IMG/VR virus record: IMGVR_UViG_3300024339_000108 | Coordinates: 1 to 20,461 of that record | Source: a virus | DNA length: 20,461 nucleotides | Strand: one strand, 5' to 3' | Shown: piece after piece, positions 8,880 through 20,272 of the stretch | Layout of the letters: each line of letters opens with the position of its first letter | Position numbering within the stretch: position 1 is the stretch's first letter | Position numbers and translations under genes: made by a program | Notes under the pieces: model-generated | What the model saw: the letters and a program-made list of their open reading frames with translations, nothing else | Told to the model about the DNA's origin: nothing | Database searches by the model: none

Positions 8880-9254
8880 GAAAATGAGTTATTTCTTAAA
8901 ATCTCGGGAAAATACCCATTCTTGTCAATAGTGCAGTATGCAGGTACAGAGCACATTGGTATTATTATGAATCAAGATAAAATTCTCACAACTATGTACA
9001 ATTTTAATGACATAGAAACAACGGAATTAAAACAGTTATTTTTAGAACTTGGTGAGACTTGGTGGTGGGAATCAAATAGAAGTATCCCGATTAATCTCTA
9101 TTTAAAGGATGAATGGATGCCATTCTCAAATTGCAAGGTTATATTCAATAATAAGAACCTTACGTTACTAAGTGGACCATGTACCAGCCTTAATGATATC
9201 TCACAGAAACGAACTAAACGGAAATCTATTACTCTAATGCGGGATGTTGACTAA
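8877..9254 (+). CDS. conserved T4-like phage protein, lone plus-strand gene
   Basis: 125 residues. The pattern is ELFLKISGKYPFLSIVQYAG near the N-terminus, a central 'ETWWWESNRSIPINLYLKDEW', and a basic end 'KKxKRKSITLMR'-like (QKRTKRKSITLMRDVD). From memory this matches a strictly conserved hypothetical protein of marine T4-like phages (WWWESNR and SITL-R signatures). Function is unknown; the conserved Trp/Arg/Lys residues suggest a nucleic-acid or protein interface. No Shine-Dalgarno site is visible before the ATG. Its last 26 bases overlap the end of the convergent minus-strand gene. It is the only real gene on this strand in the window. Confidence 0.85.
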   Translation: MENELFLKISGKYPFLSIVQYAGTEHIGIIMNQDKILTTMYNFNDIETTELKQLFLELGETWWWESNRSIPINLYLKDEWMPFSNCKVIFNNKNLTLLSGPCTSLNDISQKRTKRKSITLMRDVD

Positions 9255-9810
9255 GAATATTCATGTGTAGTACCACTAATATAGCATAACTTACTGCGTG
9301 TGCCTTTTTGAAATAATAATCATCTCCATCAGGCTTAACCCATATCTCTGTTGATATTTCTTTCCAACTCTTACCAATTAGATGTTTCTTTGCTGGTCTA
9401 ATTAATGCCAAAAACATTGCCATTCTAGGAATACTATCAGGTTTCATGAGTAATAAATTATTGTGATGATTAGAAAGATGTATTACCTGAGAACTAAATC
9501 GTTTATTCATCAAACTATCCCATTGAGGTTCCTCAGATAACAATTTGGTATAATGTGCGGTATCTTTAATATGTTTGTAAACCCCTACATTTAGAAAATC
9601 TATCTTAAAATAATCACGCTTCCCCGCCTCTGTATAATTAATACTGGCACATTTATGCACTGGGTCAAATGGAATATCAGTAACATACACCCCACTATTA
9701 TGGGTCAAAGTCTCAATATTCGATTCTTGCCTAGCAGGAATATGTCTAATTAACCTTAATATTTGATTCCTATCACAAAAATCAATATCTATATCCGCAT
9801 CCATTACCAT
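9229..9810 (-). CDS. miniature DnaE-like protein (DNA polymerase III alpha core remnant)
   Basis: 193 residues from the ATG at 9810. In the order found in bacterial DnaE, it keeps: ADIDIDFCDR (residues 5-14; Asp8 and Asp10 align with E. coli catalytic Asp401/Asp403), HNSGVYVT (37-44; DnaE HAGGVVIA), YFKIDFLNV (67-75; Asp72 aligns with Asp555), a segment ending ALIRPAK (135-141; DnaE AL-RPGP), and YFKKAHAVSYA (166-176; DnaE FNKSHAAAYA). PHP, tau-binding, OB and most finger residues are absent; the DFC-to-HAGG gap is about 25 residues instead of about 100. The three metal-binding Asp survive, but polymerase activity seems unlikely at this size. Candidate starts are 9828, 9810 and 9804; 9810 follows the upstream TAA by one base with a GGGGTGG stretch. 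It overlaps the convergent gene at its 3' end. Confidence 0.8.
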   Translation of the reverse strand: MVMDADIDIDFCDRNQILRLIRHIPARQESNIETLTHNSGVYVTDIPFDPVHKCASINYTEAGKRDYFKIDFLNVGVYKHIKDTAHYTKLLSEEPQWDSLMNKRFSSQVIHLSNHHNNLLLMKPDSIPRMAMFLALIRPAKKHLIGKSWKEISTEIWVKPDGDDYYFKKAHAVSYAILVVLHMNILSQHPALE

Positions 9811-9811
9811 T

Positions 9812-10492
9812 TTACCACCCCGCTTCATTTAACATCTTTTTTATATACTCAGCATCCGTCGGATAATCCTTAAACTTCTTATTCCATGTCTTAGCATTTA
9901 TAATTTTCCATATAGAAGTAATCTGATTTGGATACAACGTACTTAGGAATTCAACACCACTGCTACAATTATATAATACCCACGGACTTATTCGACCTTT
10001 TATTATATAATCATAAATTACATTTACGTTGCCACTTCTCAACATATCGTTGCTGTTAGTATCGTTTTCCTCCGCCCAAGTTATACTTTGTTTTAATGCT
10101 CTCATTAATGCATCAATTGGATTTTCAGTTTTCAGTAAAGTACCCAAATGCACGGAATACAAGGAATCAGATGTCCAATAATCAAGTTTTGTATTATTCT
10201 TAATTAAAAATTCAATAAATTTATCAACGGCGATTGCTTTGATATCTACACAGTATCTGCCAAATTTAACAAATGCTTTATAATATGGACTTTTAATAAA
10301 ATCCATCTGTGTTCTTACCTTTGTGCTAGATTGAGTGTAATTATAAAACTTTAAGTACGCATTAAATCCTAACCTATCACCCTTATCATCCTTATCCCTC
10401 CATCGACGTTTAGGCTCACATAAATGAACTACCAATGAATTGTGTCGTACAAAGGTTTTATTACAATATTTGCATGTGTTATTTGTCACCAC
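9812..10492 (-). CDS. zinc-finger-like conserved T4-like phage protein
   Basis: 226 residues. The N-terminus has a C2H2-like module: CKYCNKTFVRHNSLVVHLC (Cys7, Cys10, His23, Cys25), then a basic stretch EPKRRWRDKDDKGDR. The remainder is helical, with 'SPYYKAFVKFGRYCVDIKAI' and a late 'GRISPWVLYNCSSGVEFL', both of which I recall from a conserved protein of marine T4-like phages. A DNA- or RNA-binding role is inferred from the finger and basic patch. Start: GTG at 10492 (a second GTG follows); no ATG exists before the finger. It overlaps the upstream gene by 14 bases and is separated from the mini-DnaE by one base, so the pair is probably coexpressed. Confidence 0.82.
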   Translation of the reverse strand: MVTNNTCKYCNKTFVRHNSLVVHLCEPKRRWRDKDDKGDRLGFNAYLKFYNYTQSSTKVRTQMDFIKSPYYKAFVKFGRYCVDIKAIAVDKFIEFLIKNNTKLDYWTSDSLYSVHLGTLLKTENPIDALMRALKQSITWAEENDTNSNDMLRSGNVNVIYDYIIKGRISPWVLYNCSSGVEFLSTLYPNQITSIWKIINAKTWNKKFKDYPTDAEYIKKMLNEAGW

Positions 10493-11535: not shown

Positions 11536-12378
11536 CTATTTCCACTCTAATTTCTCTAATGAAAATGGGTATTCTGCATCTTTATAGAATTTCTTTCGCT
11601 TAGTTAAGTGGCGTTTAGCGAACTTACACGTACTCGTGATGTCCCAAATTTGAACAAAGTCCTTGTCCTTCGCCCTTCGCACCCCACGCCCAATTGATTG
11701 TATCACACGTACGAATGATTTTCCCGGTTCAAGTAACATAAGATTGAAAATTCTAGGTATGTTAATGCCTACTGCGGCAACACCATATGTTGCTACAATA
11801 ATTTTATTAGTTGCGTCAGCAACCTCATCATAATGTTCCTTTCTATCTTCGGTTTTAGTAGTGCCACTAACGAACACAGCATTATCTCCCAATCGCTTTA
11901 CTAACTCTTTACCAGACTCAACTCGGTCAACGAGAACTAACGTGTTGCCATTAATATTTGCTTTTTCAATGAGTTCCACCAACGCATCCAAGCGACTTGA
12001 GTCAGTCAACAAATACTTTAACTCACTTTGATAATTTGCATGTTCGGCATGGTCAAGTAATTGAACTATCTTCACTTGGCATTGCGCGAGCACTCCCTTA
12101 TCCTGTAATTCTTTAGCAGATACTTTATTAATAACATTTCCCAATCCAACATATAATGATTGGTACTCGAATTTTTCTTTAGGAACTGTTCCTGTTAATC
12201 CCCATCTCAACGGGATATGTGCCATTGGTCCTGTTAGAATGGTTTTTAGTGCGTTGGCCTTTGCACTATGACAATTGGCTACAACTGCATCATTGGCAAT
12301 ATAGTTATGGTCGTGTTGTACATGTAGATTATATACCTTTTTTGGTATATCTATCGCTTTGCGGTTAATTAACTTCAT
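11536..12378 (-). CDS. uvsW: UvsW helicase C-terminal half with split-intein C fragment
   Basis: 280 residues. Residues 1-35 form an intein C-terminal fragment: block F in YNLHVQHDHNYIAND (16-30), block G ending AVVAN (31-35), and +1 Cys36. The common penultimate His is Ala34. The extein starts CHSAKANAL and continues the helicase: motif III LTGT at 61-64, motif V ATYGVAAVGINIP at 196-208, motif VI QSIGRGVRR at 227-235. These belong to UvsW, the T4 superfamily-2 helicase that resolves R-loops and branched DNA. It lacks Walker A and cannot act alone; protein trans-splicing to the product of 12519-13544 is expected to restore about 486 residues (T4 UvsW is of similar size). Start: ATG at 12378 with AAGG about 7 bases upstream; a TTG at 12465 in the same frame is an artefact overlapping another reading frame. 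Confidence 0.92.
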   Translation of the reverse strand: MKLINRKAIDIPKKVYNLHVQHDHNYIANDAVVANCHSAKANALKTILTGPMAHIPLRWGLTGTVPKEKFEYQSLYVGLGNVINKVSAKELQDKGVLAQCQVKIVQLLDHAEHANYQSELKYLLTDSSRLDALVELIEKANINGNTLVLVDRVESGKELVKRLGDNAVFVSGTTKTEDRKEHYDEVADATNKIIVATYGVAAVGINIPRIFNLMLLEPGKSFVRVIQSIGRGVRRAKDKDFVQIWDITSTCKFAKRHLTKRKKFYKDAEYPFSLEKLEWK

Positions 12379-12508
12379 ATAATACCTTAATTTTTTGTTG
12401 TGTTTTATTATCAAAGCCTGATAATATTGTTGGTGTACCTTTTTGCAATAAGTAATTTTTATCAACTAACAATAGTGCAAAATTATTAGTGGTGCACCAT
12501 TCCTTCAA
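12365..12508 (-). pseudogene. short ORF between the two uvsW halves, possible endonuclease remnant
   Basis: A 47-codon frame from TTG at 12508 (open upstream to a TAA near 12533, with no ATG), reading LKEWCTTNNFALLLVDKNYL, then a KGTP stretch, then GFDNKTQQKIKVLYEVN to TAA. It overlaps the start of the uvsW C-half. Composition and amphipathic pattern look protein-like. In fractured phage genes with split inteins, a Vsr-like homing endonuclease often sits between the halves, and this could be the C-terminal stub of one. That is a guess: no catalytic residues are present. It could also be a small functional protein. Confidence 0.4.
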
Positions 12509-12518
12509 TGCACAGATT

Positions 12519-13544
12519 TTAGTTATATGTATTTATGTTTATGAGTTCTAAATCATACGTTAATTGGTCTGCTCTAACCCACCCACCATTGGTTAAAAAC
12601 TTATGATTTGCCGTAACTCTAATAACCTGCTCATTATCAAATGTTAATTCTAACATTTCTTCACCTTGACTATTCGATAGATTTTCATGCACATTAACCA
12701 CGATATCCTCTTTGTAAAATAACCCATTTTCGTCTAAATTTATTATTACGTCTCCTGGTTTAATATCTTCAATTGGGGTGTTCCCCCTTGGGGTTTTAAT
12801 TAATGTTTTACCATCAAGACACTCGTCCACCATAACACACACGACATCTTCTAAAAATTCACCTATGGTAACCTTTGCCTTTCCACTTTTAGTATCCTTC
12901 ATCATGATGTTAAGACTTTGCCACGTACATATAGTATGCTGTTTTCCGTAATCACGCTGTTTACCATAAAACACACCAACATCTAATCCCATGTTAACGT
13001 AGTCTTCTTCAGTTTGAATGACTAAACTTTTGTTAGGTACTATAAGAATACTTCTACCGTACTCCTGTACACGCTCACTCAATGCAGCGGTTACCAATGT
13101 TTTTCCTGCGCCAGTTGCCACCTCCTGTAAACACTGTGGGTTCTTTAAGAAGTTATTAACAACATCAATTTGATAATCACGTAGGACAATTGGTTCGCCT
13201 GCAATTGGATGTTTCTCAGGCCACATGATGTGACTATAAGTATCTTTATCAACTTCTACCAACTCAAAATTATGTTGATATTGCCGTTTATCATCAACAT
13301 CAACTTCCCATCCATCATTAATCAGTAATGGCAATATATCGGGTAGTAGATTGATATAGGTGCTTCCACCAAGATTAAAGAATGAAACCTTTCCATTCCA
13401 TCTTCCCAATCTATACGATGGCATAAACTTTGCACCAGGAATCTCATACTCAAATTCGTGCACGAGTTTTTTTCTCATATCAAGGTCAAGACCTTTAATT
13501 GCACAGTTGACTTCGTCTCTTACTACTATTGTTGCTGTTTTCAT
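12519..13544 (-). CDS. uvsW: UvsW helicase N-terminal half with split-intein N fragment
   Basis: 341 residues. 1-85 match the UvsW N-terminal domain (KFMPSYRLGRWNGKVSFFN). The superfamily-2 motor follows: LRDYQ at 121-125, Walker A TGAGKT at 144-149, motif Ia SILIVPNKSL, TWQSL at 207-211, and a Walker B strand CVMVDE ending at Glu241. Cys242 begins a 100-residue intein N fragment: block A CLDGKTLIKTPRGNTPIEDI with KPGDVI, and block B VIRVTANHKFL with Thr311/His314. The frame ends at TAA inside the intein. The break is exactly within the DExH box (VDE then CH in the other half), so neither half has an active site. ATG at 13544, GAGA weak ribosome site. No homing-endonuclease domain is fused. 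A CATAAATA at 12530-12537 could serve the C-half. Confidence 0.93.
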   Translation of the reverse strand: MKTATIVVRDEVNCAIKGLDLDMRKKLVHEFEYEIPGAKFMPSYRLGRWNGKVSFFNLGGSTYINLLPDILPLLINDGWEVDVDDKRQYQHNFELVEVDKDTYSHIMWPEKHPIAGEPIVLRDYQIDVVNNFLKNPQCLQEVATGAGKTLVTAALSERVQEYGRSILIVPNKSLVIQTEEDYVNMGLDVGVFYGKQRDYGKQHTICTWQSLNIMMKDTKSGKAKVTIGEFLEDVVCVMVDECLDGKTLIKTPRGNTPIEDIKPGDVIINLDENGLFYKEDIVVNVHENLSNSQGEEMLELTFDNEQVIRVTANHKFLTNGGWVRADQLTYDLELININTYN

Positions 13545-15446: not shown

Positions 15447-16118
15447 TTATGCAGAATATAAAGTATCGTTGCGGTACTTAACCCAAACATCAGCGTAGTC
15501 AACCAACATGTACTCATTGAAATACGGACCACCCAATGTGTAATGAATCAACTTTGGCAACATTGACGTTGGTTGTTGTTCGCCTACGAGAAAATTCCAC
15601 TCTAATGGAATGCTCCCTATTTCATCATCATTGTTCAGCCACTTGAATTGATGTAGGAACATACCACTCTCATTACTTACTACTTTCGGCGTAAGTTTCC
15701 AACATTTTGCATTATTGAACATCATAACACTAGACCAATTCTTTTTCTCGTACTTTGATTGTTTTTGATTCAGGAACTTCGTACTAGTACTCGGTGTGTA
15801 ATCATGTTTTGTGCACATTACTGCGTATCTGTCATCGCGTAAATTCCATAATTCAGTAATATCAGAAGTAACTAACATATCACAATCTAGAAATATTGAC
15901 CATCCATTATAATCACTAAGATGTGGTGTTAGGAATCTAGTCATTGAAAATTCGGTTGATTCGTATCCTTGCTTTGATTTATTGTATAAATCCTTAATAT
16001 GTTGCTTAGCGATAGGAATAAACGATACAGGGCTTGTGCTATGCTTTAGGATACTATGCGTTAGTACATGCCATGCTACTGTTTCGTGTGGGTCGTACCC
16101 TATGAATACTTTAATCAT
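15447..16118 (-). CDS. glycosyltransferase, GT8-like
   Basis: 223 residues. The N-terminus VFIGYDPHETVAWHVLTHSI is typical of GT8-type and related phage/bacterial glycosyltransferases. The DxD metal site is LDCDML (98-103), preceded by FSMTRFLTP, a strand-helix seen in the family. The C-terminal half has NFLVGEQQP and IHYTLGGPYFNEY, with the His of a common 'H(F/Y)(T)xGxP' ending. It likely transfers a sugar from a nucleotide donor. The ATG overlaps the stop of the upstream fusion gene (ATGA), so the two are translationally coupled. It is the last gene of the sugar cassette, followed by a late virion unit. Confidence 0.88.
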   Translation of the reverse strand: MIKVFIGYDPHETVAWHVLTHSILKHSTSPVSFIPIAKQHIKDLYNKSKQGYESTEFSMTRFLTPHLSDYNGWSIFLDCDMLVTSDITELWNLRDDRYAVMCTKHDYTPSTSTKFLNQKQSKYEKKNWSSVMMFNNAKCWKLTPKVVSNESGMFLHQFKWLNNDDEIGSIPLEWNFLVGEQQPTSMLPKLIHYTLGGPYFNEYMLVDYADVWVKYRNDTLYSA

Positions 16119-16873
16119 TCTATGCGTTCTATATCATCTTCCATACATTGTTCCCCATATTGTATTTCAATAATACGCAATGGTGATGATGTTTTATTAC
16201 TCAATTTATGCCAAGTACCAATCGGTATTTCAATTTTCCCATATAAATCAAACTCAGCCTTCATATGATGTTCAAAATCATTCATTTCCACCGTAGCAAT
16301 ACCCTCAGACACAAACCAAAATTCACTACGATGTTGATGTTTTTGTAGACTTAAGGTTTTTCCAGGCTCTACAGTAAGTTCCTTAACTTTATGTGTACTT
16401 GTTTCGTGTATAACTCTATAGTAACCCCAAACTCGTTCGGTTTTGGGTGCCGTCCATTCATGTAATATCCACGACGATGAATTCTTCTTTTCATCGCCAC
16501 CTATACTAAAATGAAATTTAATATCCATCCAAGCAGGACATGTACCCATTTCAGGTATATTATCCTCAACTCTATCACCACCATTTAAGAAGTTAATAGT
16601 AGCACCGTGATATAAACGTGCAGTCATTTTTATTGCATCACATGCACTATCATCACTATCATCAAATACAATTACGTCCTGTACCCCTTTGATGTTACGT
16701 AGTATCTCTACTCGCTCATGCAATGGCATAAATGCACGTCCTTTCTTACGTGCCAACCATTCATCACTATTAACCGCAACTACTAATCTGCCGTACTTCT
16801 GTGCTTCTTTTATGTATGCTAGATGTCCACTGTGAAGTGGGTCGAATCCGCCTGTAATTAACGCTACTTGCAT
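16115..16873 (-). CDS. nucleotidyltransferase-cupin fusion (sugar-phosphate metabolism)
   Basis: 252 residues, two domains. Residues 1-130 form a HxGH nucleotidyltransferase: GGFDPLHSGHLAYIKEAQKY (8-27), VVAVNSDEWLARKKGR, PLHERVEIL. This is the TagD/RfaE type that activates a small phosphate (glycerol-3-P, heptose-1-P and similar) with CTP or ATP. From about 145 onward it is a type II phosphomannose-isomerase/ManC C-terminal cupin: WGYYRVIHET, VKELTVEPGKTLSLQKHQHR, EFWFVSEGIATVEMN, IPIGTWHKLSN, ending EDDIERIE. The metal-site His pair is in KHQHR with Glu following. Both domains look intact. The overall product is unknown. The ATG at 16873 follows the methyltransferase stop as TAATATG, with CGGA weak ribosome site. 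Confidence 0.88.
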   Translation of the reverse strand: MQVALITGGFDPLHSGHLAYIKEAQKYGRLVVAVNSDEWLARKKGRAFMPLHERVEILRNIKGVQDVIVFDDSDDSACDAIKMTARLYHGATINFLNGGDRVEDNIPEMGTCPAWMDIKFHFSIGGDEKKNSSSWILHEWTAPKTERVWGYYRVIHETSTHKVKELTVEPGKTLSLQKHQHRSEFWFVSEGIATVEMNDFEHHMKAEFDLYGKIEIPIGTWHKLSNKTSSPLRIIEIQYGEQCMEDDIERIE

Positions 16874-16874
16874 A

Positions 16875-17618
16875 TTATTGTCCGTACCAAATATTACTAT
16901 AATCTAACCACGGAAGAACCAAATCTTCACGCTTCATATATCCATATTTATTAATACTTTCAACACCTGTTTTTGGTATTAGTCCTTTGTCTGCTAAGTC
17001 GTACCATGATGTTGTTTTTGGATTCATTGGTTCGATATCACTTTTATAAACAATTGCATTAACCCACTTATCATTAAATTGCTGTTGAAAGAATCCCGAA
17101 CTGCAATCAAACCCACTAACTGCTAACATATGAATTAAACCGTCGATGGTGTAATTATGGTAATGATAGTTGGGCTGTGAACATACCAATTTATTGTATT
17201 CCATGTTAGCCGTGCTTGGTATCTGCAAAACCAACATACCACTTTCAGTTAACGTATTATTCCAAATACTTAATGTTAGTAAAGGGTTTAATGCATATTG
17301 AAAACTATCATGTGAATATAATACATCAAACTGTTTGTCCAAATGTGTTTCAAAATCATGCTTTATATATGATATGTTTTCGTGTTCCAATAACAATTTA
17401 TCATTGATATCAATACCAGTACACTTGATATTTAATGGAATAGTAGTGTCATCCTCATCCACTTCACGTGTTGCCCACCATTCTAAATCTAACCCTTCTT
17501 TACCACATCCCATATCACAAACACTATCAATGCTTTCCATAAAATCAGGATATGCATATAGTAATTCAAGTGTTTCTAAACTATGTTCATGACTTTCTTG
17601 CTCTGAACTAAATCCCAT
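16875..17618 (-). CDS. SAM-dependent methyltransferase (class I)
   Basis: 247 residues. Motif I is VCDMGCGKEG (33-42); the following acidic strand is CTGIDIND; motif II/III is FDVLYSHDSFQYALNP, then LTESGMLVLQIPST. This fold methylates small molecules, sugars or peptides; the sugar neighbours suggest a sugar or glycolipid target. The C-terminal 60 residues (SGFFQQQFNDKWVN..) may bind substrate. The ATG at 17618 overlaps the end of the upstream gene by 11 bases. Confidence 0.88.
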   Translation of the reverse strand: MGFSSEQESHEHSLETLELLYAYPDFMESIDSVCDMGCGKEGLDLEWWATREVDEDDTTIPLNIKCTGIDINDKLLLEHENISYIKHDFETHLDKQFDVLYSHDSFQYALNPLLTLSIWNNTLTESGMLVLQIPSTANMEYNKLVCSQPNYHYHNYTIDGLIHMLAVSGFDCSSGFFQQQFNDKWVNAIVYKSDIEPMNPKTTSWYDLADKGLIPKTGVESINKYGYMKREDLVLPWLDYSNIWYGQ

Positions 17619-18636
17619 TAATTAACTCCAATACAAGTTCATGTTTTCTTAATCTATGCATAGATACGAGATTATTTAATAATTGTGTATTTTTACTTAT
17701 GCGATTCCACAAATTACCCCTCAAAACATTCATATCATGAATAGAATACTCATTACACAATCGCTCAAGTTCACCAACAATCATTTCCATACGTACATTT
17801 TCATCGTACATATCGTCGTACCCATGGTCAATAATGTCATCAAATACATCAAACCCCAAATCACGAACTGCTTGAACTGTTTTTGGAACAGAGAACCACA
17901 TGGGCAGTTGCCTATATGCAAATGCTTTAAATGTTTTTTCAGTAAGAAATACTTCTCGCCAACTATCATCATCTGATTGTGAACTAGTTTCAGTGACAAC
18001 ATTTATTAAACATTGGAAAAAACTTACATCAGAATGATAATGCTGTTTCATATCATTATCGATTACACCATCAACTAATATCGGAACGGTATATGGATGT
18101 ATCGCTTCTTTGAAGTCGGGTAACTCATTCAACCATTTGTTTGGTTGAGTTGCACAACTAATGATGTACTGCGAATCAGTGAATGTGTCGAGTAATTTCT
18201 TAGTGAATTTCAACCTACCAACTGATGCTCTTCGTTGCAATGAAATAAATTGTTTATTAAGTTTAACATCGTCCCACGAAATACCCAATGCATCCACATG
18301 TGATAAAAAATTACAATGCGCGACCATATGCTCAGGAAAACTTCGGTGCATGTACCGAAGTTTAGAGTTGATTGGAATGTTAAACAATACCCGAATCTCT
18401 AAGTTTGGATAGTCAGTACCGATTGCTGACAGCATTAGTTCAATATCATTAGTTCCAATACCCTCATTAACACAATCAAAAATACACAAATCATCAATTT
18501 GTACACCTTCACTAAGTATTTGGGAGTTGAATAGATGTAGAAAGTTTCCTTTCCTGATTATGTCAAAATCATTATCCCATACATTGTATATTGGGGTACC
18601 GTTGATATACCAAAACAGTGGTCTTGGTGATGGCAT
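17608..18636 (-). CDS. glycosyltransferase-like protein of marine phages
   Basis: 342 residues. The C-terminal half has VFLTEKTFKAFAYRQLPMWF, VPKTVQAVRDLGFDVFDD and IIDHGYDDMYDE. From memory this is the conserved signature of a GT10/fucosyltransferase-like family common in marine phages (EKTFK..., LGF..FDD..D..YD). The N-terminal half holds 'LCIFDCVNEG' and 'ISLQRRASVGRLKFTKKLLD', the latter probably nucleotide-sugar-proximal. The donor and acceptor are unknown. The ATG at 18636 directly follows the upstream stop (TAAATG). Confidence 0.75.
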   Translation of the reverse strand: MPSPRPLFWYINGTPIYNVWDNDFDIIRKGNFLHLFNSQILSEGVQIDDLCIFDCVNEGIGTNDIELMLSAIGTDYPNLEIRVLFNIPINSKLRYMHRSFPEHMVAHCNFLSHVDALGISWDDVKLNKQFISLQRRASVGRLKFTKKLLDTFTDSQYIISCATQPNKWLNELPDFKEAIHPYTVPILVDGVIDNDMKQHYHSDVSFFQCLINVVTETSSQSDDDSWREVFLTEKTFKAFAYRQLPMWFSVPKTVQAVRDLGFDVFDDIIDHGYDDMYDENVRMEMIVGELERLCNEYSIHDMNVLRGNLWNRISKNTQLLNNLVSMHRLRKHELVLELINGI

Positions 18637-19089
18637 TTATACGACTACATCCTCCATACCTGCTGTGCGAAGTTTGACAATATGTCCTAATTGCCATTGT
18701 TTAGTATCTAATCCCTTCATGATACCCAACCAACGGTTTCTCAACAACGCGACCTCATTAATTAGTAATTCAAAATCAATCACTTCACTTTCCCCATCCG
18801 CGTACTTCTCCGCATCACGGCTACTTAATGAACGTTGGTATGCTTCTAAATATTTTTTGAAGTATTTTCGCCTGATGCGTCTTAACTCAATATTGAGAAA
18901 TTCTAGTACTGCTTCGATTTCTTGTAATTGATAAAATCGATGCTCGGTAACACCAGGTAATTCCTTAATATTAGTTTCTACATGCCCACTAAGTCTCACT
19001 TCTTGCTTAGCATCATCTAATTGTTTATTGTAATATTCAATGAATGATGGAATATTCAATAAATTTTTCGTTACCTTAGAATACCACAT
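18637..19089 (-). CDS. conserved T4-like phage protein (possible UvsY-like recombination mediator)
   Basis: 150 residues, mostly helical, from ATG at 19089 (MWYSKVTKNL); a TTG at 19101 would add four residues. Core: ELPGVTEHRFYQLQEIEAVL, EFLNIELRRIRRKYFKKYLE, RSLSSRDAEKYADGESEVID, NEVALLRNRWLGIMKGLDTK, then GHIVKLRTAG. From memory this is a well conserved T4-like marine phage protein. The end (K-Y-G/D-E-S-E-V-I-D-helix-'GIMKGLDTKQWQLGHIVKLR') resembles T4 UvsY in layout, and UvsY loads UvsX on single-stranded DNA. The identity is uncertain and the flanking genes are sugar genes, so a T4-core gene sits inside the cassette. The start overlaps the upstream stop. Confidence 0.8.
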   Translation of the reverse strand: MWYSKVTKNLLNIPSFIEYYNKQLDDAKQEVRLSGHVETNIKELPGVTEHRFYQLQEIEAVLEFLNIELRRIRRKYFKKYLEAYQRSLSSRDAEKYADGESEVIDFELLINEVALLRNRWLGIMKGLDTKQWQLGHIVKLRTAGMEDVVV

Positions 19090-19090
19090 A

Positions 19091-20272
19091 CTATATACCA
19101 ATCCATTTTAAAAAACTAGATGGGAATATTCCGAGTGATAATTTTGGGTTTCTTTTGGTAAACTCCAACAGAAATTCTTTTATCTGAATACGTTGGGCGT
19201 TGGTCGGTGTTGGGTGTATCGACGATACTATCATACGTTGTATGTCTGTGGGCAATTCCTTCGCATCATCTACTATACGATTCTTACTTTCTTGGTCAAG
19301 AACATATATAGCCATCATACTTGGGGTATATACCAAAGTAGTTCTAATGTCATAATTACCAAATAATTTATAAAAATCGGAAAAACCAAATATAGAAAGG
19401 TTTGATAATGTTGTATTAAAATCAAAATGGACATTATGTTCCTTTAAATAATTTATTTTCCCATCAAAGTCAGCCCACTTGAGCCCACTTCTGTTAAATT
19501 CTAAATTATCGTGTATATTTTCTGCACTAATTCGTATAGTAACATTACCATTAATTTTTTTAATTTTATCAACATACCGCTTAAAACGATGCATACTAAC
19601 CCCCAATCCAGTATATATAATAATTTTAGAACTTAATGACATTTTTATATTGTCTAATATTTCAAATAATCCATTATTAACAAATGGCTCCCCTCCGGAA
19701 ATTATTAACTTATCAAGTGAGTGAGATATCTTGATAACTTCGGTCATTACGTATTGGTAATTTTCATTACTTTTAATTTCGTTTTGTTTCACCTTCGAAA
19801 TATTTAGTTCACGTGATGTGATGGAATTGCGGTTAATCAAATCTATGGAAGCGTTACTATATGTATACTCCCCATTTTTTTTAATATCATTAAACCACGT
19901 TGAACTAAATTCCTTGCAACAATACGTGCACATTAAATTACAATCCTTACTTATCGTCAAATCAATCTTTTCTGGAGTAGTGAAAATATCAGTATGTGTT
20001 TTAACTTCCCCTCCCTGCCATATTCTAGGACTTTCGGCACCCTTATCCTCTGCCACCCAACAATTTTGCTCGCAACTAACATTCCTACCATTGTTCAGCA
20101 TCATAGTACGTTCGGCAACATTTATATCATCATTAAATAATGAATTATTGGATTCACAATCTATATTGTGTGGAGTTGCTGCATGGCAATTATAAACAGT
20201 GTCTGAACTTAAATCTATCTTCAAAAACCTAAATTTATAATTGCAATAGTAATTTCGGGGTTTATCTGACAT
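19091..20272 (-). CDS. radical SAM enzyme
   Basis: 393 residues. The 4Fe-4S motif CNLMCTYC (Cys111, Cys115, Cys118) and GGEP at 193-196 (LIISGGEPFVNNGLFEIL) are clear, so it reductively cleaves SAM to a 5'-deoxyadenosyl radical. The N-terminal 100 residues are Cys/Asn-rich (YYCNYKF at 8-14; CEQNCW at 68-73) and resemble the N-terminal part of twitch-type radical SAM proteins, possibly holding another cluster. The C-terminal 200 residues are the partial barrel. Substrate unknown; the neighbours suggest sugar or peptide modification. The ATG at 20272 has no good ribosome site and starts 3 bases after the previous stop. Confidence 0.9.
   Translation of the reverse strand: MSDKPRNYYCNYKFRFLKIDLSSDTVYNCHAATPHNIDCESNNSLFNDDINVAERTMMLNNGRNVSCEQNCWVAEDKGAESPRIWQGGEVKTHTDIFTTPEKIDLTISKDCNLMCTYCCKEFSSTWFNDIKKNGEYTYSNASIDLINRNSITSRELNISKVKQNEIKSNENYQYVMTEVIKISHSLDKLIISGGEPFVNNGLFEILDNIKMSLSSKIIIYTGLGVSMHRFKRYVDKIKKINGNVTIRISAENIHDNLEFNRSGLKWADFDGKINYLKEHNVHFDFNTTLSNLSIFGFSDFYKLFGNYDIRTTLVYTPSMMAIYVLDQESKNRIVDDAKELPTDIQRMIVSSIHPTPTNAQRIQIKEFLLEFTKRNPKLSLGIFPSSFLKWIGI

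What the first reader, a model, noticed from the sequence alone, without database searches (positions are those of the whole stretch)
11536..13544. uvsW is fractured by a split intein placed inside the DExH box
The N-half ends its helicase sequence at VMVDE and continues directly into an intein N fragment (Cys at residue 242, block A CLDGKTLIKTPRGNTPIEDI, block B VTANHKFL). The C-half begins with a 35-residue intein C fragment (YNLHVQHDHNYIAND, AVVAN) followed by Cys-His-Ser. Reassembly gives VDE|CHSAKAN, a seamless DExH motif. Neither half alone has both Walker A and motifs III-VI, so the cell makes active UvsW only by trans-splicing. Split inteins in fractured phage-type genes (gp41, NrdJ, IMPDH from marine metagenomes) are known; whether this uvsW site is described I cannot say.
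Basis: partly seen in the sequence, partly recalled or inferred. Interest (0 to 1): 0.92.

Follow-up and report, generated by a model that had tools for sequence, protein, structure and literature searches.

The report
Helicase gene split by an intein
A phage DNA-repair helicase (UvsW) is made as two separate proteins that carry the halves of a self-splicing intein exactly in the ATPase active site and must be stitched together; the gap between the genes holds the wreck of the homing endonuclease that used to move this element, and the same broken gene occurs in many environmental phages and some cultured ones.

Summary
Two same-strand ORFs (12519-13544 and 11536-12378, minus) encode UvsW residues 1-241 plus a 100-aa IntN, and a 35-aa IntC plus UvsW residues 242-486; the junction is VDE^CH in motif II. 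The joined extein aligns with T4 UvsW (2OCA) nearly end to end. All class-1 splicing residues are present and both intein pieces are under purifying selection. The same protein occurs in three other metagenomes, so it is not an assembly error. All 74 loci newly fetched with the IntN profile carry it after the DE of motif II. Empty, split+HEG, split with HEG remnant and re-fused cis alleles exist; cultured Salmonella phage S16 and Proteus phage PM2 are fractured identically. A 1.3-kb intein+HEG unit nearly identical in phages whose uvsW differs by ~26% shows mobility. Some relatives have a second, atypically split intein at Walker A: uvsW in three pieces. A new member of a known kind (fractured genes, Dassa 2009) with an unusually complete evolutionary series. 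Splicing itself is inferred.

The parts
12519..13544 (-). N-half ORF, 341 aa: UvsW N-extein + intein N fragment
   Evidence: Pfam ResIII/DEAD, UvsW_N (below cut-off), TIGR01445 above cut-off
12822..13544 (-). N-extein, UvsW residues 1-241
   Evidence: aligned with T4 UvsW 2OCA; 90% identical intein-free allele L006
13098..13118 (-). Walker A ATGAGKT (N-half only); the place where relatives carry a second intein (GK^T)
12822..12830 (-). VDE of motif II (DECH), last extein codons before the intein
   Evidence: boundary set by empty alleles
12522..12821 (-). Intein N fragment, 100 aa (Cys1, block A, block B TANH)
   Evidence: dN/dS 0.12 vs L005
12379..12518 (-). 140-b gap between the halves
12365..12520 (-). 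Remnant of a homing endonuclease gene: 51 open codons without a start (KICALKEWCTTNNF...KIKVLYEVN*), overlapping the C-half ATG
   Evidence: 70% identical over 53 aa to residues 254-306 of the intact HEG of L005, E 1e-23
12385..12388 (-). AAGG, possible Shine-Dalgarno of the C-half
   Evidence: read from sequence; not tested
11536..12378 (-). C-half ORF, 280 aa: intein C fragment + UvsW C-extein
12274..12378 (-). Intein C fragment, 35 aa (block F HNYIAND, block G VVAN, terminal Asn35; penultimate Ala rather than His)
   Evidence: dN/dS 0.09 vs L005
12271..12273 (-). +1 Cys codon: nucleophile of splicing and the x of DExH
   Evidence: Cys in every occupied allele whose C side was read
11539..12273 (-). 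C-extein, UvsW residues 242-486, motifs III-VI
   Evidence: (Helicase_C)

Best explanation
This is a fractured uvsW gene. Two proteins are translated from adjacent ORFs. Their intein pieces (IntN 100 aa, IntC 35 aa, split at the usual endonuclease insertion point) associate, fold into a HINT domain and splice in trans: Cys1 N-S shift, transfer to +1 Cys, Asn35 cyclisation. UvsW is thereby joined at VDE^CH, and the +1 Cys becomes the x of the DECH box. The break arose when a free-standing homing endonuclease gene (PD-(D/E)XK, TnsA-like domain plus NUMOD3) sat between the intein halves and spread the unit between phages. In this phage lineage most of that gene has since been deleted, leaving 51 codons, so the split intein is stranded: it can no longer home by itself but is needed for UvsW. 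Shown: anatomy, homology, HEG remnant, purifying selection, empty/split/cis alleles, horizontal movement of the unit in relatives. Inferred: that splicing occurs, that the HEG cuts the empty site, and that unspliced halves are inactive.
For: Intein domains pass curated cut-offs. The joined extein matches T4 UvsW 2OCA 29-470 at E 2e-30, with the junction inside MDECH. A natural cis homologue (L078) is modelled as a HINT fold (pLDDT 85, pTM 0.81), best matches DnaB mini-inteins, with NrdJ-1 and gp41-1 split inteins also matched. In 74 loci fetched with the IntN profile alone the upstream residues are the DE of motif II in every one, and NCH follows wherever the C side is on the contig. Intein-free alleles join exactly at this codon, including 90%-identical L006. 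The gap encodes the HEG C-terminus (70% over 53 aa, E 1e-23). dN/dS vs L005 is IntN 0.12, IntC 0.09, exteins 0.04. L019 and L021 share a 1315-bp unit ~100% identical while their exteins are ~74% identical at DNA level; L030/L042 are similar.
Against: No splicing or expression data. The penultimate His is Ala in the window (allowed in known inteins such as DnaE, from my own knowledge, but not tested here). dS between window and L005 exceeds 1, so dN/dS is approximate. Target cutting by the HEG is inferred from its place and the mobility pattern. A non-covalent two-subunit helicase is not excluded by sequence.
Confidence: 0.9

Rival explanations
1. The halves work as a non-covalent two-subunit helicase (genes in pieces, like NrdA of phage Aeh1), and the intein remnants no longer splice.
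For: Split phage enzymes that function without splicing are known (NrdA of Aeh1, gp43 of phage 25; PMC2988022).
Against: Catalytic residues and both fragments are conserved and under purifying selection; the break lies inside motif II between E and the x residue, and the extra 100 and 35 residues would sit in the ATP site (inference).
Confidence: 0.06
2. Sequencing or assembly artefact that broke a contiguous uvsW or a cis intein gene.
For: Metagenome contig without reads available; real cis-intein alleles exist at the site.
Against: The same N-half and gap recur in three other metagenomes; no single indel restores one frame because the HEG remnant stands between the halves.
Confidence: 0.02
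3. The uvsW locus is a decaying pseudogene after insertion.
For: The HEG part is indeed decayed.
Against: Extein dN/dS 0.04 on both sides, no stops, motifs intact.
Confidence: 0.03
4. The gap was never a HEG; a primitive split intein came first and the HEG invaded other lineages later.
For: Some split or cis alleles with very short linkers show no convincing HEG match beyond the overlap with intC (L112, L228, L166).
Against: For the window the HEG C-terminus is recognisable over 53 aa (E 1e-23); HEG remnants also occur in L036, L063, L069, L205, L208 and L215.
Confidence: 0.08

Closest known systems
Fractured genes with split inteins and free-standing endonucleases (Dassa et al. 2009, NAR 37:2560; abstract known to me, paper not held)
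   Same: Conserved phage DNA enzyme broken in two by a split intein, with an endonuclease gene between the halves in most members.
   Different: Host gene and site are uvsW motif II; in the window the HEG is a remnant; cis re-fused and three-piece forms occur in the same gene family. I cannot tell whether UvsW is among the eight enzyme types of that paper.
gp41-1, NrdJ-1, IMPDH-1 and NrdA-2 split inteins
   Same: Typical split, IntN ~100 aa and IntC ~35 aa, phage/metagenome origin, HINT fold (NrdJ-1 and gp41-1 structures matched).
   Different: Different exteins and insertion sites; 17-28% identity to the gp41-1 and NrdJ-1 structures; here Cys1, Cys+1 and VVAN^C.
PolB split intein with HNH endonuclease of Pseudomonas phage MIJ3 (PMC6892783)
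   Same: Jumbo phage, split intein with an endonuclease ORF between the halves.
   Different: Intein in DNA polymerase B with Ser at both splice junctions, HNH endonuclease.
uvsW of Salmonella phages S16 and STP4-a and Proteus phage PM2
   Same: Same site (NDE^CH), homologous intein (IntN 52-57% identical), HEG between the halves overlapping both.
   Different: HEG ORF present and open; extein is T4-type; penultimate intein residue His; annotated only as helicase / hypothetical protein / helicase.

Membership tests
Split intein (class 1) | Cys/Ser1 with blocks A and B on IntN | tested here: met
   TIGR01445 29.4 bits vs cut-off 24.5; C1, T70, H73 invariant in A3
Split intein (class 1) | Blocks F and G, terminal Asn, +1 Cys/Ser/Thr on the C-half | tested here: met
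   TIGR01443 23.6 vs 15.6; HNYIAND...VVAN^C
Split intein (class 1) | HINT fold | tested here: met
   Model of natural cis homologue L078; the two window fragments were not folded as a complex
Split intein (class 1) | Trans-splicing activity | not testable with these tools
   Needs co-expression
Fractured gene (Dassa 2009) | Conserved enzyme broken by a split intein, halves adjacent | tested here: met
Fractured gene (Dassa 2009) | Free-standing endonuclease gene between the halves | tested here: not met
   Only a 51-codon remnant in the window; intact in closest fractured relative L005 and in most members. The locus is therefore filed as a derived member that has lost this part.
Fractured gene (Dassa 2009) | Endonuclease of the Vsr-like family (about half of loci) | tested here: inconclusive
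   Motif II HEG: TnsA-like PF08722 and NUMOD3 PF07460; weak TnsA fold match (E 0.035, prob 0.97), Vsr only rank 49
UvsW helicase (T4 type) | UvsW N-terminal domain and SF2 motifs in one joined protein | tested here: met
   2OCA 29-470, E 2e-30; phrog_16; UvsW_N below cut-off (21.3 vs 25.3 bits)
UvsW helicase (T4 type) | Branched-DNA/R-loop unwinding activity | not testable with these tools
   Needs biochemistry or complementation

The most novel reading that the evidence does not exclude
The uvsW motif II site shows the whole life cycle of a fractured gene in living alleles: empty, split plus endonuclease, endonuclease lost by deletion leaving either a stranded split intein (window, L063) or a re-fused cis mini-intein (L036). 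Combined with a second, atypically split intein at Walker A, it yields natural three-polypeptide helicase genes (L069/L071, L099, L183, L188, L229) that need two different trans-splicing reactions. If not already reported, this shows by direct example how HEG-less split inteins arise and that gene fracture is reversible.
Probability: 0.55. Interest if true: 0.68.

Novelty: new member of a known kind. Interest (0 to 1): 0.52.

Why it matters
Split inteins are workhorses of protein engineering, and how natural ones came about is argued mostly from models. Here one insertion site offers the steps side by side in close relatives, with an endonuclease relic still readable in the window. The site also adds a large set (203 IntN-bearing loci found in IMG/VR, 80 kept) of split inteins to test as tools, and natural three-piece genes with two presumably orthogonal pairs. 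It also warns annotators that uvsW in such phages, including cultured Salmonella phages, is recorded as separate fragments.

Tried and rejected
A general drop in DNA identity next to the site in occupied versus empty allele pairs was tested as a co-conversion footprint and not found on average (-0.021 versus -0.027 and -0.024 in same-state pairs); only single pairs show it (L078/L086, L085/L147, L030/L114). The HEG as a Vsr-type nuclease was considered; the fold and profile evidence favours TnsA-like. The HEG had no convincing PDB sequence match. A genome-contig scan gave only three contigs binned into MAGs, aligned from residue 31-32 on, so no host; the intein profile A1 was not conserved enough for that scan. 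The paper search found no description of uvsW with a split intein, but Dassa 2009 is not held. Very short HEG matches at the 3' end (L078, L112, L166, L228) were discounted because the HEG reading frame overlaps intC there.

Full report
What is in the sequence. The window is a whole IMG/VR record of 20,461 bases with T4-like replication genes: DnaB/gp41-type helicase, primase, PhoH and uvsW. On the minus strand, ORF 12519-13544 encodes 341 aa and ORF 11536-12378 encodes 280 aa. The first is UvsW to VMVDE (residue 241) followed by a 100-aa intein N fragment. The second is a 35-aa intein C fragment followed by CHSAKAN... Joined, the exteins make 486 aa that align with T4 UvsW (PDB 2OCA) over residues 29-470 at E 2e-30, the junction falling inside the MDECH of motif II. 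Both intein ends pass the curated NCBIfam cut-offs.

Not an artefact. The same N-half and gap occur in three other metagenome contigs, L002-L004. No single frameshift could join the halves, because the only open frame across the gap belongs to something else.

What the gap is. In the nearest fractured relative (L005, exteins 89% identical) the same place holds an intact 306-aa ORF that starts just after the IntN stop and overlaps the IntC start by about 10 bases. It has a NUMOD3 motif and a TnsA-like PD-(D/E)XK domain, both clearest in the relative from L077; its model, of low overall confidence (pTM 0.47), resembles TnsA only weakly, and PHROGs calls a related family endonuclease. The window's gap, read in the frame after the IntN stop, gives KICALKEWCTTNNFALLLVDKNYLLQKGTPTILSGFDNKTQQKIKVLYEVN*, 70% identical over 53 residues to the last residues of that endonuclease (E 1e-23). 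So the window lost about 780 bp of a homing endonuclease and kept its tail. The alignment is compatible with a deletion between short CTAAA repeats (my reading). L063/L064 show a separate internal deletion, relative to L011, between GAAAAAATTA repeats that kept both ends of the gene.

How widespread. A scan with the IntN profile alone found 203 related loci in IMG/VR, 80 kept; all 74 newly fetched ones have the intein after the DE of motif II, and wherever the C side is on the contig it is followed by NCH. Of these, 57 have a HEG-sized insert, 9 a small gap, 6 are contiguous cis inteins and 2 run off the contig. Some of these loci are the same contigs as in the first scans, so the counts are not all independent. 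Cultured Salmonella phages S16 and STP4-a and Proteus phage PM2 have the same arrangement with the endonuclease ORF still present, annotated as helicase, hypothetical protein and helicase. PHROG families 16259 and 9690 match the two halves, intein included.

States and their order. Alleles without the intein join at the very same codon. The window's sister on the extein tree is an empty DEAH allele 90% identical (L006), and L005 with the HEG is next. Presence of the intein changes at least 18 times on the tree and always comes with Cys at the DExH x position. Empty alleles mostly have Val or Ala there (65 Val, 6 Ala, 11 Cys, 1 Thr of 83). In independent pairs on starred branches the Cys goes with the intein in about 10 of 13 and never the other way (p about 0.002). 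This fits the chemistry, since +1 Cys is needed, and suggests that the codon is brought along on homing. A uniform conversion footprint was not found, but L078 (cis) and L086 (empty), otherwise about 99-100% identical, differ mainly within about 115 and 85 bases of the site. The unit moves: L019 and L021 share a 1315-bp IntN-HEG-IntC unit that is ~100% identical while their exteins are 74% identical at DNA level; L030 and L042 are similar. HEG remnants lie in the linkers of HEG-less alleles, including the contiguous L036, where 13 residues of HEG tail (SRFDNNTARKIKT, in another frame) are still readable. So at least this cis intein is a re-fusion of a fractured ancestor, not its precursor.

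Is it working? Cys1, TxxH of block B, His and Asn of blocks F and G and +1 Cys are all there. dN/dS against L005 is 0.12 (IntN), 0.09 (IntC) and 0.04 (exteins), with dS above 1. A natural cis homologue folds as a HINT domain. I infer trans-splicing; nothing here shows it. Loss of the HEG means that the window's copy cannot home by itself, yet the helicase now depends on the two intein pieces: a stranded parasite.

Three-piece genes. In L069/L071, L099/L177, L183, L188 and L229 uvsW is broken a second time at Walker A (GK^T) by an atypically split intein (IntN 25-39 aa, IntC about 135-140 aa ending HHN^T), mostly with its own long ORF that looks like an endonuclease by position but has no significant Pfam match. 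In L180-L182, L184 and L185 that IntN runs on in frame into the second ORF. L072 and L211 have large contiguous inteins there, and L210 and L215 mini-inteins, each together with a split at motif II. In the three-piece loci UvsW would need two different trans-splicings. This is outside the window but perhaps the most unusual thing found.

Standing. Against the literature I could read, uvsW motif II is not described as a split-intein site, but the defining paper on fractured genes is not held. I file the window as a new member of a known kind, with the HEG-remnant state and the allele series as the added value.

Noticed in passing
L099 1454-5834; L069, L071, L183, L188, L229: uvsW in three polypeptides: an atypically split intein at Walker A (IntN 25-39 aa, IntC ~135-140 aa, HHN^T) plus the split intein at motif II.
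   Followed up: partly
L180-L182, L184, L185: The short Walker A IntN is continuous in frame with the downstream ORF, i.e. an IntN fusion to the presumed endonuclease as a split state.
   Followed up: no
L072, L211 (and L210, L215): Large contiguous intein (L072, L211) or mini-intein (L210, L215) at Walker A of uvsW, together with the split intein at motif II.
   Followed up: no
L156 3314-6040 (Salmonella phage S16), L157 3314-6046 (Proteus phage PM2): uvsW of cultured phages is fractured by the same intein plus HEG but annotated as separate helicase, hypothetical and helicase genes; PM2 has a further homing endonuclease just downstream of the C-half.
   Followed up: partly
L018 5694-6980: IntN frame runs on in frame through the HEG to overlap IntC: a fused IntN-HEG form at motif II.
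   Followed up: no
window 9229-9828 (-): 199-aa ORF matching a PHROG called DNA polymerase (phrog_11778), far too short for a whole polymerase.
   Followed up: no
window 15447-20272 (-): Radical SAM protein (19091-20272) and a cytidylyltransferase-like protein (16115-16873) in a run of genes that are unusual next to replication genes.
   Followed up: no
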